DNA from: Synergistaceae bacterium | Lineage (GTDB): Bacteria; Synergistota; Synergistia; Synergistales; Synergistaceae | DNA length: 32,329 nucleotides | Direction: 5' to 3' | Assembly (NCBI GenBank): GCA_031289955.1 | Contig: JAITOL010000165.1 | Span: 1-32,329, forward strand | In this document: one piece after another, positions 26,238 through 30,866 of the stretch | How the letters are laid out: the number at the start of each line of letters is the position of its first letter | How positions within the stretch are numbered: position 1 is the stretch's first letter | Translations under genes and position numbers: made by a program | Notes under the pieces: model-generated | The model's database searches: none | Told to the model about the DNA's origin: nothing | The model's input: only the letters and a program-made list of their open reading frames with translations

Positions 26238-26948
26238 TCATTCTAAATATTCGCGTACCAGTTTCTTGATAGTTTTCTTTGCCTCTTCCATACCTGAAAG
26301 TCCTATCAGCCTTTTGTAATCCTCTATTTCATCGCCTGTGAATACTATGGAAATAATTCTCTGGTTATTACCGGCTATATGCCCATAATTTTCAGGATAT
26401 GCCCAGAAACATTTTGCGCAAAATGAAACATCCTTGATTTTCCAATTCTCACAATGTTCACATGTCCATGATTTAGCTCTATTTGCGGAGGGACACAATA
26501 ACATATACGCCTCGACATTGTCCTCATCCTGCTCTCCGCCAATTTCATATGGGATTCTATGATCGACCTGCAATAAATTTTCATCAACTGGTTCGTAATA
26601 AATAAAGCATTTTGCCCCATGCTTATCAATCAACGCCTGTTTCAATATTTTTGAAAGAGCAGTCCGACCAGCTACCTTTGATAACATATGTTTGACATCA
26701 CTTGGATCGCCAAGCTTATATGCTGCAATTTTTCTGCCATCACTACCTTCAATGCGATAAGTAATCAAAGGGATTCCGTACTCTCTAACATCGCGTACTG
26801 CCCTTGGAGGATGGTTATAGCCGTATAAATCCTTCAACTCTTGTGACGATATATAGCCATGTTTCAAAATATGCTGTATTACAGTTCGGGGGCGTTTTGC
26901 TTCTATAGAGTTCAATAAATCTAAAAACTCTTTGGGGTACTCGTTCAT
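26238..26948 (-). CDS. HNH-type restriction endonuclease
   Basis: Probable type II restriction enzyme, 236 residues. The beta-beta-alpha-metal (HNH) site is at about 120-165: LLQVDHRIPYEIGG with the catalytic His after Asp, then EDNVEAYMLLCPSANRAKSW. It is followed by a two-CxxC zinc ribbon (CEHC and CAKC). The N-terminal ~60 residues are wHTH-like (GYISSQELKDLYGYNHPPRAVRDVREYG). Its ATG overlaps the methylase stop by 4 bases, the tight coupling typical of a restriction-modification pair. Base composition is much more AT-rich than the flanks, indicating transfer. A standalone HNH nuclease is the alternative, but the methylase partner argues against it. Recognition sequence unknown. Confidence 0.85.
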   Translation of the reverse strand: MNEYPKEFLDLLNSIEAKRPRTVIQHILKHGYISSQELKDLYGYNHPPRAVRDVREYGIPLITYRIEGSDGRKIAAYKLGDPSDVKHMLSKVAGRTALSKILKQALIDKHGAKCFIYYEPVDENLLQVDHRIPYEIGGEQDEDNVEAYMLLCPSANRAKSWTCEHCENWKIKDVSFCAKCFWAYPENYGHIAGNNQRIISIVFTGDEIEDYKRLIGLSGMEEAKKTIKKLVREYLE

Positions 26949-27853
26949 ACAACACTCTCCAACAAAGTCAATTGTCTTTGTGTTATATCAATCGGCAATG
27001 ATAGATTTTGACTGATATATAATGCTTCATATGTTGTATGCCTTTTTCCCAACAACGTTGCTTGTGTTGATAAACCTGCGTCAAGAAGGATTTTTGTACA
27101 ATTCAGTTCTTGGGGCAACTCGGAACCATATTCTTTTTCACCACAAATTCCATCGTAGCTAATTATATAATCAACCTGATTGCGGTTGAGAACCGCAACT
27201 GCCGAGACAAATTCATCAAAGTTCACACCAGAAAAATAACGATTATCCCTCGTATTTGTAACTCCCTGATATGGGGGATCCATATAGACTAAATCGCCCG
27301 GCTTCGCAATTTCAAGAACCCTCCGATAGTCAAGAGCAGAAAATAAAACACGTCCCTTTAAAATATGGGAAATAGCATGGACATTAGTTGCTATAGTAGT
27401 GGGCTTTGTGCCATTTCGACGTTTATCAGGAGACTGATTAAAATTTCTGTTTTTTCCATATCTTACCGCTCCCTTTACGCATCGCGCCAGTAAATATAGC
27501 ATATTCTCAGCACTTTTGTCCCCCGCATTGAATAACTCTCTTATGTAATTAAAATGCTCTATGTGTCCATCAGGGAAATTGAATTGCTCCTCCCAAATTC
27601 TTTTATATTTATCAACGATTTCCGCGGGATTTTCTATCACAGTCTGTAATAGGCATACGATTGGCTCGTTCAAATCGTTTATGTGATATTCATTGGCACG
27701 TTTCTGGAAAGCAACCGCTATTGATATCGCCGCCATCCCCGAAAAAGGCTCAATCAGTCGATTGAACTTTTTAGGCATGTACCTAAGAATTTCAGAAGCA
27801 AGCATTCTTTTTGAGCCTTGATATTGTACAATATGCGGTATTCTCCCATTCAT
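26945..27853 (-). CDS. DNA adenine methylase (D12/Dam class)
   Basis: N6-adenine DNA methyltransferase of the D12 class, 302 residues, protecting host DNA from the neighbouring HNH nuclease. The AdoMet motif (I) is IEPFSGMAAISIA, preceded by the QYQGSKRMLA segment that replaces motif X in this class, and the catalytic motif IV is DPPYQG. A target-recognition region lies between them (about 70-190). I chose ATG 27853 with GAGGTGG just upstream rather than the overlapping GTG three codons earlier. It is the first gene of the cassette, AT-rich like its partner, and is preceded by a small palindrome in the promoter region. Confidence 0.92.
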   Translation of the reverse strand: MNGRIPHIVQYQGSKRMLASEILRYMPKKFNRLIEPFSGMAAISIAVAFQKRANEYHINDLNEPIVCLLQTVIENPAEIVDKYKRIWEEQFNFPDGHIEHFNYIRELFNAGDKSAENMLYLLARCVKGAVRYGKNRNFNQSPDKRRNGTKPTTIATNVHAISHILKGRVLFSALDYRRVLEIAKPGDLVYMDPPYQGVTNTRDNRYFSGVNFDEFVSAVAVLNRNQVDYIISYDGICGEKEYGSELPQELNCTKILLDAGLSTQATLLGKRHTTYEALYISQNLSLPIDITQRQLTLLESVV

Positions 27854-27904
27854 CTTATCCACCTCGTATCATCACAGAGACAACTAAAATTACCACTATA
27901 CGCA

Positions 27905-27976: not shown

Positions 27977-27997
27977 CGCCGCCCGATTCAGGCGGCG
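27977..27997 (-). terminator. GC hairpin at the plsC stop codon
   Basis: CGCCGCC (27977-27983) and GGCGGCG (27991-27997) form a perfect 7-bp stem with a 7-base loop that contains the plsC stop codon. No uridine tract follows on the minus strand, so it may slow or end transcription only weakly. Confidence 0.4.
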
Positions 27998-28626
27998 TCC
28001 CTCATCTTTAACATCGCGCCCAGTATGGAATCCAGCATGGCCTGACGGCGTTCCTTCTCGGGCATTTCGTCCGGGAAATCTTCGCGCGTTATCGGCGGCC
28101 CGAACGTCACGGAGATCCGATATGGCCGCGGGAAACGATGAAACAGCGGATACGCCTCGAACGAGCCCTCTATCCAGATCGGCACTATGGGCGCTCCGGT
28201 CTTCGACGCGATCAGGGAGACGCCTCCCTCAAAAGGAAGCAGGCTGCCGTCGGGCGTCCTCTCCCCCTCCGGAAAAATCAACACGCTGTACCCTTCCTTT
28301 ATAAAATTCATAACATCGCGCAGCAGGCTCGCGCCGCTGTTTTTGTTCTGCTGATTGACGGGAACCGCGCCGAGCGCGCCGAGCAGCGCGGCGAACGGAC
28401 GAAATTTAAAAAGACCGTCCCACGCGATAAACCGCAGAGGATTTGGAAACACCATGCCGATCGCCGGGGGGTCGAGATAACTTTCGTGGTTCGCCACGAG
28501 TATCACGGGAGAGTTTCCCCTGGAGACGAGAAACTCGCGAAGCTCTTTCATCCCCCTGATGGAAATGCGGTGATATATGAGGAAATATATCCGGAATAAA
28601 ATCTGAGCGATCCAGTAGACCATCAT
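27988..28626 (-). CDS. plsC: 1-acyl-sn-glycerol-3-phosphate acyltransferase
   Basis: Lysophospholipid acyltransferase of the PlsC family at the inner membrane, adding the second acyl chain to make phosphatidic acid. The 212-residue protein has one N-terminal hydrophobic helix (about 3-18), the catalytic NHESYLDP (HxxxxD), the glycerophosphate-binding FPEGERT, and VPIWIEGS. Length is typical for the short bacterial form. Two adjacent ATGs are possible; the second (28623) sits better relative to GGGGGG. It is divergent from ptb and separated from the restriction cassette by a hairpin. Confidence 0.92.
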   Translation of the reverse strand: MMVYWIAQILFRIYFLIYHRISIRGMKELREFLVSRGNSPVILVANHESYLDPPAIGMVFPNPLRFIAWDGLFKFRPFAALLGALGAVPVNQQNKNSGASLLRDVMNFIKEGYSVLIFPEGERTPDGSLLPFEGGVSLIASKTGAPIVPIWIEGSFEAYPLFHRFPRPYRISVTFGPPITREDFPDEMPEKERRQAMLDSILGAMLKMRDAA

Positions 28627-28714: not shown

Positions 28715-28799
28715 CTGTTTCTGAAAACGCGCTCATTATGGTACTATTTTGACAGTCTGAAATTCCAAACCATCGATAATTCAGGGAGGTATGAATGTA

Positions 28800-29723
28800 A
28801 TGAAGCAACTGCGCACTCTCACCGACATGCTCCAACACGCGCGCACCGTAGGGCCGATGACGATCAGCGTGGCCTGCGCGGCCGACGCGGACGTTCTGCA
28901 GGCCGTCGACGCCGCCAGAAAAGAAGGGGTCGCCAACGCGATATTGGTCGGCAACGCGGACAAGATAGCGGAAGCGGCCCGCCTCAATTCGATCGATCCG
29001 GGAAACTTCGAGATACTGGACGAAAAGGGCGGCGAGGCGGACGCGGCGCTAAAGGCGGTGGAACTCGTGTCGTCCGGCAAGGCTCAGATATTGATGAAGG
29101 GAATGCTTCATACCGACAACTTCCTTCGCGGCGTCCTGAACAAGGAAAAGGGGCTCCGCTCGGGGAGCGTCATCTCTCACGTCTATTTACACCAGGTTGA
29201 GGGCTACGACAGGATCATCTTCATCACGGACGGGGCGTTCATCCCCTCCCCAGACCTTCCCACGAAAGCCAAGATCATCGACAACGTGGCGAGGTTCGCC
29301 CACTCGTTCGGCATAGAGACGCCGAAGGTCGCGGTGTTGGCGGCCGTCGAGGTCGTAAACGCCGACATGCCGGCAACGCTCGACGCGGCCGCTCTGACCC
29401 AGATGAACCGCCGCGGCCAGATAAAGGGCTGTGTTGTGGACGGCCCGCTGGCGCTCGACAACGCGGTTTCGGAGCTGTCGGCGAAGCACAAGGGCATAGT
29501 GTCCGACGTGGCGGGAAAGGCCGACATACTGCTCGTGCCCAACATCGAAAGCGGCAATATCCTGGCGAAGTCCATCGTCTACTTCGCGCCGAACAAGACG
29601 GCCGGAATAGTGCTCGGCGCAAAAGCGCCGATAGTCCTCACCAGCAGGGCCGACTCGGCGGAGGCCAAGACGTTCTCCATAGCGGCCGCCGTGGTCTGGG
29701 CCGCATACCAGAAAAACAAGTAA
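28800..29723 (+). CDS. ptb: phosphate butyryltransferase
   Basis: Cytoplasmic acyltransferase of the Ptb/Pta family, exchanging CoA for phosphate on butyryl-CoA (or branched acyl-CoA) so that a kinase can make ATP. The 307-residue protein matches Ptb length and shows ILVGNADKI, QILMKGMLHTDNFLRGVLN, the HVYLHQVEGYDRIIFITDGAF segment, and ILLVPNIESGNILAKSIVYF near the end. I chose the second ATG (28800), nine bases after AGGGAGGT; the ATG at 28791 directly abuts that site. The following gene is a butyrate-kinase homologue, the usual partner, but its active site looks degenerate. Pta activity on acetyl-CoA is a possible alternative. Confidence 0.9.
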   Translation: MKQLRTLTDMLQHARTVGPMTISVACAADADVLQAVDAARKEGVANAILVGNADKIAEAARLNSIDPGNFEILDEKGGEADAALKAVELVSSGKAQILMKGMLHTDNFLRGVLNKEKGLRSGSVISHVYLHQVEGYDRIIFITDGAFIPSPDLPTKAKIIDNVARFAHSFGIETPKVAVLAAVEVVNADMPATLDAAALTQMNRRGQIKGCVVDGPLALDNAVSELSAKHKGIVSDVAGKADILLVPNIESGNILAKSIVYFAPNKTAGIVLGAKAPIVLTSRADSAEAKTFSIAAAVVWAAYQKNK

Positions 29724-29733
29724 AACAGCTCGG

Positions 29734-29761
29734 GGGGAGGTCGCGCGACGCCGGCCTCCCC
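29734..29761 (+). promoter_or_regulatory. strong hairpin holding the only SD-like sequence before the kinase homologue
   Basis: GGGGAGGTCG (29734-29743) pairs with CGGCCTCCCC (29752-29761) over ten positions including one G-T wobble, with an 8-base loop. The left arm contains the only GGAGG near the next gene. It may sequester ribosome binding or protect the upstream mRNA; no uridine run follows, so a terminator is less likely. Confidence 0.5.
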
Positions 29762-29774
29762 TATATATACGACT

Positions 29775-30866
29775 GTGAAGATATTCACTCTCATTCCAAA
29801 GGCATCCGCCACAGAAATAGCGGTTTTCGAAAACGACGAGGCGATATTCAGCAAAACGATAGCCCACGTCCCGTCGGAATTCGCCGCGCTCCGGACCCCT
29901 CCGGAGCAGGGACAATACCGCTTCAACGCCATAATCGAGGCCGTAACGGCGTCTGATTTCGACATGAAGGACGTCGGAGTCGTCATCACAGAGATCGCCT
30001 CCCGCAGACTGCCGGCCGGAATATATATGATAGACGACTCCATCACCGCCATTCTGGCGGAAAACATGATAGATGAAAACCAGCACAGATCCGGCGTGTT
30101 TGCGGCGCTCCTCGTGAGCCGGCACATAGGCGGCAATCACGACGTGGAGTGTATGCCGCTCGTCGTGGAGCCCATAATCATAAGCGAAATAATGCCGGAA
30201 GCCGCCATCAGCGGTCTGAAGGGAATAACGCGCGAACCCGTGTGCAACACTTTATCGCACAGGACGGCCGCGTCCCACTACTCTCACTACGAGAAGGGCA
30301 GCGGCCTGAACGACGCGCGCGTGGTGGCCGTCCATCTGGGCAACGAGATTAGCGTCGGAGCGTACGACATGGGCAGGCTGCTCGACAGCAACAGCCCCCA
30401 GGATGGAGAGGGGCCGTTTTCCCCGTTCACGAGCGGAACCTTGCCTGCTAACTCGCTCATAGACCTCTGCTACTCCGGAAGATACGATATGGACGAGACC
30501 CTCAGGATAATATCGTCCGAAAGCGGGCTTTCCGCCTATCTGGACGACGCGTCGCTGCCGGCCGTAATGAAGGCATACAGGGCAGGGCACAGGAAAACGA
30601 TTTTCATGGTGAAAGCGATGGCATACAAGACCGCGCGGGAGATAGGCGCGAAAGCCGCCGCGCTCTCCGGCAGCGTGGAGGCCATACTGCTCACCGGCCC
30701 ATGGGCGGTTTTTGAAGAATTCACGCGCGAAATATCGTCCCGCGTCGAGTGGATAGCGCCGGTGCGCAACTACGCGCTGGAAGGCGAAATGAAACAGCTC
30801 GCCCGGGCGGCGGCGGAAGTTTATAAAGGCAACGTCAAAATAAAACTGTACGGCCTGGATTGCTGA
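29775..30866 (+). CDS. butyrate kinase homologue with degenerate active site
   Basis: ASKHA-fold acyl kinase relative, 363 residues, full length for butyrate kinase. Clearly conserved: HLG (187-189), ISVGA, DGEGPFSP (210-217), SG.LP (220-224) and the C-terminal IAPV pattern. Yet the N-terminal phosphate motif NPGSTSTK is replaced by IPKASATE, GRGG is replaced around 70-78 (ITEIASRR), the HLGGG glycines become HLGNE, the catalytic DP aspartate region reads VVEPI (E132), and LTGGIA becomes LTGPWA. These changes suggest lost or altered kinase activity. The GTG start has no nearby ribosome site, only a hairpin upstream. It follows ptb by 51 bases on the same strand. It may be a regulatory subunit, a pseudo-enzyme, or have another substrate. 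Confidence 0.85.
   Translation: MKIFTLIPKASATEIAVFENDEAIFSKTIAHVPSEFAALRTPPEQGQYRFNAIIEAVTASDFDMKDVGVVITEIASRRLPAGIYMIDDSITAILAENMIDENQHRSGVFAALLVSRHIGGNHDVECMPLVVEPIIISEIMPEAAISGLKGITREPVCNTLSHRTAASHYSHYEKGSGLNDARVVAVHLGNEISVGAYDMGRLLDSNSPQDGEGPFSPFTSGTLPANSLIDLCYSGRYDMDETLRIISSESGLSAYLDDASLPAVMKAYRAGHRKTIFMVKAMAYKTAREIGAKAAALSGSVEAILLTGPWAVFEEFTREISSRVEWIAPVRNYALEGEMKQLARAAAEVYKGNVKIKLYGLDC

What the first reader, a model, noticed from the sequence alone, without database searches (positions are those of the whole stretch)
29775..30866. Butyrate kinase homologue that has lost most catalytic motifs, next to ptb
The protein is full length and keeps HLG, DGEGPFSP and SG.LP, but the NPGSTSTK, GRGG, HLGGG, catalytic-Asp and LTGGIA motifs are all altered (residues 7-14, 70-78, 132, 188-191, 306-311). 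Codon use and frame are intact, so it is under selection as something. A pseudo-kinase paired with an apparently intact phosphate butyryltransferase could be a regulator, a subunit of a second kinase, or an enzyme with changed chemistry.
Basis: partly seen in the sequence, partly recalled or inferred. Interest (0 to 1): 0.72.

Follow-up and report, generated by a model that had tools for sequence, protein, structure and literature searches.

The report
Conserved dead butyrate kinase beside ptb
In gut bacteria of termites, a gene that once made the energy-yielding enzyme butyrate kinase has lost the residues needed to handle ATP, yet it has been kept, and its pocket rebuilt in one consistent way, always beside its old partner enzyme, so it most likely does a new, probably regulatory, job.

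Summary
ORF 29775-30866 (363 aa) is a full-length butyrate-kinase (Buk) homologue in which every ATP/phosphoryl-transfer motif is altered. It is not a lone or decaying gene. Seventeen copies from termite-gut Synergistaceae (the others 44-70% identical to the window's) share the same replacements, carry no internal stops, have dN/dS about 0.1-0.2 in most pairs (like intact Buk), and all lie directly behind ptb. The phylogeny shows in-place conversion of the ancestral Synergistales ptb1-buk1 operon, through part-degenerate intermediates. Fourteen positions, mostly in old active-site motifs, are fixed differently in the clade (K->E, H->N, N->R, D->E, L->W and others), so the cleft was re-specified rather than relaxed. 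Ptb is intact. At least six genomes carrying the gene show no intact Buk, which argues against a subunit of a second Buk. Two more degenerate Buk clades (B, C) arose independently in the same genomes. Best explanation: a pseudo-butyrate kinase working with Ptb1, probably binding acyl-phosphate or Ptb1 itself. Altered, non-ATP chemistry is the main rival. No report of it was found in the open literature searched.

The parts
29775..30866 (+). BukA: degenerate butyrate kinase homologue (363 aa, GTG start)
   Evidence: AlphaFold2 mean pLDDT 89, Foldseek TM 0.80-0.83 to T. maritima Buk2 1x9j/1saz
28791..29723 (+). Ptb1: phosphate butyryltransferase, apparently intact; constant upstream neighbour of BukA
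   Evidence: NF004472 409 bits over its cut-off of 399; C-terminal TSRADS motif kept, 116 of 129 residues invariant in intact ptb1-buk1 operons kept; ptb in 50 of 53 family genomes
29724..29774 (+). ptb-bukA gap with a strong hairpin (GGGGAGG...CCTCCCC) and no properly spaced Shine-Dalgarno before the GTG start
   Evidence: RNA fold z -2.9, -3.8 with flanks; hairpins of different sequence in most orthologous gaps and also in several intact ptb1-buk1 operons
29793..29816 (+). former PHOSPHATE1 loop, residues 7-14 IPKASATE (ancestral NPGSTSTK); E14 fixed in 17/17, basic residue at position 9 in 17/17
30078..30089 (+). residues 102-105 NQHR (ancestral HASN); N102 and R105 fixed in 17/17
30168..30170 (+). 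residue E132 in place of the catalytic Asp (D128 of Buk2); Glu in 16/17
30390..30446 (+). residues 206-224 NSPQDGEGPFSPFTSGTLP; loop strongly kept but the catalytic Arg (R214) is T219
30690..30713 (+). former ADENOSINE motif LTGPWAVF (ancestral LTGGLAYS), residues 306-313; W310 and F313 fixed in 17/17
27988..28626 (-). PlsC-like acyltransferase, divergent from ptb; conserved neighbour of the locus in most clade-A members
   Evidence: PF01553
31033..31953 (+). M23 peptidase downstream; retained downstream gene of the ancestral ptb1 locus in several relatives
   Evidence: PF01551

Best explanation
BukA is a pseudo-butyrate kinase that arose in place in the ancestral Synergistales ptb1-buk1 operon. 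Shown by sequence: it keeps the ASKHA two-domain fold (predicted) and the DGEGPFSP loop, but has lost the ATP-phosphate loop, both catalytic arginines, the catalytic Asp and the adenosine motif, and has fixed a new residue set at the same positions. Inferred: it cannot make ATP. It uses the rebuilt, nucleotide-free cleft to bind Ptb1's acyl-phosphate product, or docks on Ptb1 itself, and so gates or senses the acyl-CoA/acyl-phosphate step, while any ATP formation from acyl phosphates is left to AckA or the separate intact Buk where one exists. Steps and odds: dead as an ATP-dependent butyrate kinase about 0.93; under selection for a function about 0.97; functional partner of Ptb1 about 0.65; non-catalytic ligand-binding or regulatory role rather than new catalysis about 0.6 to 0.65 given the above.
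For: Loss of the R91-type and R241-type arginines alone predicts a near-dead enzyme: R91A and R241A acetate kinases keep 0.3-4% activity (PMC6461089). Here N8, K15, D128 and the P-loop are also changed, and G331-I332 of MtACK corresponds to x-W310. Seventeen copies, no internal stops; dN/dS 0.08-0.23 in 10 of 11 pairs, one 0.42, against 0.13-0.18 for intact Buk. Fourteen positions fixed differently in clade A and in intact Buk1, mostly in cleft motifs. Ptb1 directly upstream in all 17, gap 20-375 bp, about 55 bp in most; Ptb1 intact. Tree: clade A, its sister and two part-degenerate members form one group (SH-aLRT 97) beside the intact Buk1 of other families that sit behind the same ptb1; long stem (1.0) then ordinary branches. 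Fold kept.
Against: No binding or activity data of any kind; adjacency to ptb may be inherited rather than functional. Many genera of the family keep ptb1 with no buk behind it, and G009 of the same genus has ptb1 followed by an unrelated gene, so BukA is dispensable for whatever Ptb1 does there. The kept or new polar residues at the cleft positions (E14, N102, R105, E132, H187, E338) fit an altered enzyme as well as they fit a sensor. The SH-aLRT values are from a quick tree.
Confidence: 0.5

Rival explanations
1. Changed chemistry: BukA is an enzyme that uses acyl phosphate without a nucleotide, for example an acyl-phosphatase or a phosphotransferase to a non-nucleotide acceptor, turning Ptb1 + BukA into a CoA-recycling or acyl-transfer module.
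For: H182 and the metal-site Glu are kept; E14, N102, R105, E132, W310 and F313 are fixed in 16-17 of 17, as expected of a re-specified active site. Precedent: Entamoeba histolytica acetate kinase, in which bulky residues at the same ADENOSINE positions go with pyrophosphate use instead of ATP (PMC5517563). Genomes such as G008 have Ptb1 but no intact Buk and no AckA found.
Against: The Arg, Asp and P-loop residues that carry out phosphoryl transfer are gone, not only those that hold the nucleotide. No new catalytic motif is recognised.
Confidence: 0.27
2. A protein whose new role has nothing to do with Ptb1 or acyl phosphates (scaffold or other ligand), staying next to ptb only by descent.
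For: Gene order of the locus (plsC, ptb1, M23) is itself inherited; two further degenerate Buk clades (B, C) are not beside ptb and are also conserved.
Against: Adjacency to ptb1 holds in all 17 copies across four genera while the rest of the neighbourhood changes; the DGEGPFSP loop is the best kept part.
Confidence: 0.1
3. Regulatory or structural subunit of a catalytic kinase: BukA pairs with an intact Buk as a heterodimer.
For: Acetokinases are dimers (PMC3475010). The window genome has an intact Buk (L050) and a probable second one (L054).
Against: Six genomes with BukA, including all four of genus g18, show no intact Buk in any contig; the intact Buks of the window genome lie elsewhere, not beside ptb1.
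Confidence: 0.08
4. A pseudogene in decay or under relaxed selection.
For: Many family members have lost buk1 altogether; the copies inspected use non-ATG starts and the window copy lacks a well placed Shine-Dalgarno.
Against: dN/dS well below 1, no internal stop in 17 copies, new residues fixed across 44-70% identity.
Confidence: 0.03
5. An ordinary butyrate kinase whose residues are replaced in shifted or equivalent positions.
For: D128->E is chemically similar; H182 and E338 are kept.
Against: Both catalytic arginines, N8, K15 and the P-loop are lost with collinear alignment; only 25 of 121 Buk1-invariant residues remain in all clade-A copies.
Confidence: 0.02

Closest known systems
Butyrate kinase (Buk; NCBIfam TIGR02707/NF002834; T. 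maritima Buk2, PDB 1saz/1x9j)
   Same: Same length, fold and domain order; about 30% identity; same operon position behind ptb; descends from it
   Different: ATP P-loop, both catalytic Arg, catalytic Asp and the second glycine of the adenosine motif all replaced; fails the TIGR02707 equivalog score
Entamoeba histolytica PPi-dependent acetate kinase (PDB 4h0o)
   Same: Acetokinase-family member with the adenosine pocket changed by bulky residues at the G331-I332 positions (PMC5517563)
   Different: An active enzyme whose described changes lie in the nucleotide-binding motifs; BukA has lost the phosphoryl-transfer residues too and is a Buk, not an Ack
TsaB/YeaZ, inactive ASKHA partner of TsaD (recalled, not tested here)
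   Same: ASKHA-fold protein without its own catalysis, kept as partner of another protein
   Different: Its partner is a paralogous ASKHA enzyme; BukA's neighbour is Ptb, an unrelated fold
Buk/Ptb acyl-CoA salvage module of Listeria (cited in PMC10026030)
   Same: ptb-buk gene pair linked to branched-chain acyl-CoA supply
   Different: Listeria Buk is an active kinase

Membership tests
Butyrate kinase (EC 2.7.2.7) | Whole-length match above the equivalog score TIGR02707 | tested here: not met
   244.7 bits vs cut-off 289.1; only the broader NF002834 subfamily is passed
Butyrate kinase (EC 2.7.2.7) | PHOSPHATE1 motif N-P-G-S-x-S-T-K | tested here: not met
   IPKASATE; N and K replaced in 17/17
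Butyrate kinase (EC 2.7.2.7) | Two catalytic arginines (R91/R241 of MtACK) | tested here: not met
   E73/T219; neither position is Arg in any of 17
Butyrate kinase (EC 2.7.2.7) | Catalytic Asp (D148 of MtACK) | tested here: not met
   E132; Glu in 16/17, Ala in 1
Butyrate kinase (EC 2.7.2.7) | ATP-dependent phosphorylation of butyrate | not testable with these tools
   needs purified protein
Acetokinase family, ASKHA fold (PF00871) | Two-domain ASKHA fold | tested here: met
   PF00871 23.9 bits vs 22; AlphaFold2 pLDDT 89, TM 0.80-0.83 to 1x9j/1saz
Pseudoenzyme of the acetokinase family | Catalytic residues lost but sequence under purifying selection across species | tested here: met
Pseudoenzyme of the acetokinase family | No catalytic activity of any kind | not testable with these tools
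   new chemistry cannot be excluded from sequence
PPi-dependent acetate kinase type (EhACK) | Nucleotide pocket blocked while phosphoryl-transfer residues are kept | tested here: not met
   adenosine motif G-L -> x-W in 17/17 fits a blocked pocket, but Arg/Asn/Asp are lost
Phosphate butyryltransferase (neighbour, Ptb1) | Whole-length match and conserved residues | tested here: inconclusive
   NF004472 subfamily passed (409 vs 399), TIGR02706 equivalog missed (383.5 vs 410.5); 116/129 conserved residues kept

The most novel reading that the evidence does not exclude
Ptb1 + BukA is a new two-gene acyl-phosphate module in which a former kinase has become a nucleotide-independent enzyme or acyl-phosphate sensor, and Synergistaceae have done this repeatedly (clades A, B, C and perhaps a fourth in genus g3), replacing substrate-level ATP formation by another use of acyl phosphates.
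Probability: 0.3. Interest if true: 0.78.

Novelty: new variant of a known kind. Interest (0 to 1): 0.56.

Why it matters
Ptb-Buk is a textbook pair for making ATP from acyl-CoA. Here the transferase half stays intact while the kinase half is rebuilt in the same place, with surviving intermediates (G012, G015, G032, G026) that suggest an order of loss: P-loop Asn/Lys and the first Arg first, the Asp, second Arg and glycine-rich loops later. It is a natural series for how an ASKHA kinase becomes something else. It also warns that 'butyrate kinase' annotations and butyrate-pathway counts in gut metagenomes include members predicted to be catalytically dead: in genus g18 all the Buk genes found are of this sort.

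Tried and rejected
Lone mutated gene or MAG error: rejected, 17 copies plus part-degenerate intermediates in single-contig genomes (G012, G015, G032). Shifted catalytic residues: rejected, alignments are collinear. Pseudogene: rejected by dN/dS and absence of stops. Ptb1 as a PlsX substitute feeding acyl phosphate to phospholipid synthesis, suggested by the plsC neighbour: not supported as a replacement, since PlsX-type proteins (PF02504) are in 50 of 53 family genomes. Obligate partner of an intact Buk: disfavoured, none found in at least six genomes with BukA. The ptb-bukA hairpin as a feature special to the degenerate gene: rejected, several intact ptb1-buk1 operons have one too. First pass of the alignment was discarded because minus-strand loci had not been turned. 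Literature: no paper with 'butyrate kinase' and 'pseudoenzyme'; two with 'pseudokinase', whose titles (a cancer-pharmacology review and a C. difficile phosphoproteome) are on other subjects and were not read.

Full report
Observation. The ORF at 29775-30866 (+) encodes 363 aa, starts with GTG and lies 51 bp behind ptb. It is a butyrate kinase homologue over its full length: NF002834 263.9 bits (cut-off 222), but under the TIGR02707 equivalog cut-off; T. maritima Buk2 1saz/1x9j at E 1e-46. Two more losses were not named: the Arg of the ERSG loop (T219 here) and the His of EHASN (N102 here). Kept: the His of AHMGGG (H187), the metal-site Glu (E338), and the DGEGPFSP loop.

It is a family, not a lone mutant. 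A search of 61 relatives, a scan of 84,980 species genomes and the family search gave 17 copies in all, the window included, the others 44-70% identical to it. The 16 found in named records are all 'MAG: Synergistaceae bacterium' whose bin codes look like those of a termite-gut survey (compare PMC9137090; the link to termites is inference from the record titles). They fall in four genera (g1, g12, g13, g18). No copy has an internal stop. All 17 stand directly behind ptb1 (gaps 20-375 bp).

Selection. Pairwise dN/dS (Nei-Gojobori, synonymous sites partly saturated) is 0.08-0.23 in 10 of 11 pairs and 0.42 in one; intact Buk of the same genomes 0.13-0.18; ptb 0.02-0.20. Comparing 17 clade-A copies with 11 intact Buk1 orthologues, 37 positions are conserved in both, 53 are fixed in intact Buk1 but free in clade A, and 14 are fixed in both but differently. 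Those 14 include K15->E14, G73->T72, H104->N102, N107->R105, D128->E132, N202->S207, L305->W310 and S308->F313; in addition position 9 is always Lys or Arg where Buk has Gly. Several of these positions correspond to residues that line the active site of acetate kinase (PMC3475010, PMC4390882). Relaxed decay would not fix one new set; I read this as a cleft made over for something else.

Why it cannot be an ordinary kinase. In acetate kinase, changing Arg91 or Arg241 alone leaves 0.3-4% of activity (PMC6461089), and changes at Asn211, Gly239 or Gly331 cost 6- to 200-fold (PMC4390882). Here both arginines, the P-loop Asn and Lys, the Asp and the second Gly of the adenosine motif are gone together. 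The residue at the MtACK Ile332 position is Trp in all 17; bulky residues at these two positions are proposed to block the nucleotide pocket in Entamoeba acetate kinase (PMC5517563).

Origin. In the tree clade A, its sister L049 (G026) and the part-degenerate L082 (G015) and L085 (G012) form one group (SH-aLRT 97) next to the intact Buk1 of other Synergistales families. Nearly all of these sit behind the same ptb1, so the kinase was converted in place. G012, G015 and G032 have lost the P-loop Asn and Lys and the first Arg but keep Asp, His and the second Arg; G026 has lost nearly all. The stem of clade A is long (1.0) and the branches inside are ordinary. Elsewhere in the family buk1 is simply gone: G011, G013, G016, G018, G034 and G036 have ptb1 (62-66% identical) with no Buk gene. 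The locus is plsC (divergent), often DUF502, ptb1, [buk1 degenerate or absent], alpha/beta hydrolase, M23 peptidase.

Partners. Ptb1 looks intact: 116 of 129 residues invariant in intact operons are kept in the window, against 57 of 121 for Buk. The window genome has an intact Buk (L050), a probable second one cut by a contig end (L054), AckA and three more degenerate Buks (L051, L052, L053). All four genomes of genus g18 and G008 and G022 have BukA with no intact Buk found. MAG incompleteness (80-96%) is a caveat, but the same gap in all four genomes of one genus is unlikely to be chance. This speaks against BukA as a subunit of an active Buk.

Structure. AlphaFold2 on a 42-sequence alignment gives mean pLDDT 89, pTM 0.80; the best crystal structures are T. 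maritima Buk2 at TM 0.80-0.83. The fold is predicted to be kept.

Expression. The ptb-bukA gap holds a strong hairpin in most copies, and the starts read are GTG or TTG (the L041 position reads CTG), never ATG, whereas intact Buk1 mostly starts with ATG. Hairpins also occur in intact ptb1-buk1 gaps, so they are old; the weaker starts suggest less BukA than Ptb1. This is inference.

Mechanism. Shown by sequence: loss of ATP and phosphoryl-transfer residues, selection, fixed new residues at cleft positions, constant Ptb1 neighbour. Inferred: BukA binds acyl phosphate or Ptb1 and tunes the acyl-CoA/acyl-phosphate step. Non-ATP chemistry is the main rival. No activity or binding has been measured. 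Novelty: a new variant of a known kind (a pseudoenzyme branch of the acetokinase family); the literature searched holds no report of it.

Noticed in passing
L051, L052 (own genome C95, C88); L061, L064, L069, L076, L078 and others: Clade B: a second, independent degenerate Buk lineage (SPYYNHTK, SVGG, Asp kept, second Arg -> Gln, HMGGG -> NLDTT), two copies in the window's genome, not next to ptb; in L052 followed by a Glucosamine_iso-domain gene and a YbaK-like gene.
   Followed up: partly
L053 (own genome C69), L062, L066, L070, L075, L077, L079, L080: Clade C: a third degenerate Buk lineage, sister to the intact Buk2 of other families; in L053 it lies next to a class-IV aminotransferase, as do some intact Buk2 genes (L083, L089, L091), so it too seems converted in place.
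   Followed up: partly
L086 (G012:C1:281593-282318) and matches in G032, G076: A fourth, short Buk-like protein without most catalytic residues in genus g3.
   Followed up: no
window 26238-27862 (-): HNH-endonuclease-domain gene plus D12-class adenine DNA methyltransferase, a likely restriction-modification pair with unusual codon use, inserted between the iron-dependent repressor gene and plsC; absent at the same place in L039.
   Followed up: partly
L178, L171, L177, L185 and others, downstream of ptb1: Family-wide ptb1 locus, often without buk: DUF502 membrane protein, ptb1, an alpha/beta-hydrolase-like protein with a conserved HGVHSSANL motif, and an M23 peptidase. Ptb1 without any acyl kinase beside it has no obvious role.
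   Followed up: partly
L074 (G021), L058:4675 (G001): Otherwise intact Buks with the catalytic Asp replaced by Asn; sister to clade B, possibly a first step of degeneration.
   Followed up: no
window 29724-29774 and orthologous ptb-buk gaps: Intercistronic hairpin conserved in structure but not in sequence, with non-ATG starts in all clade-A copies inspected.
   Followed up: partly
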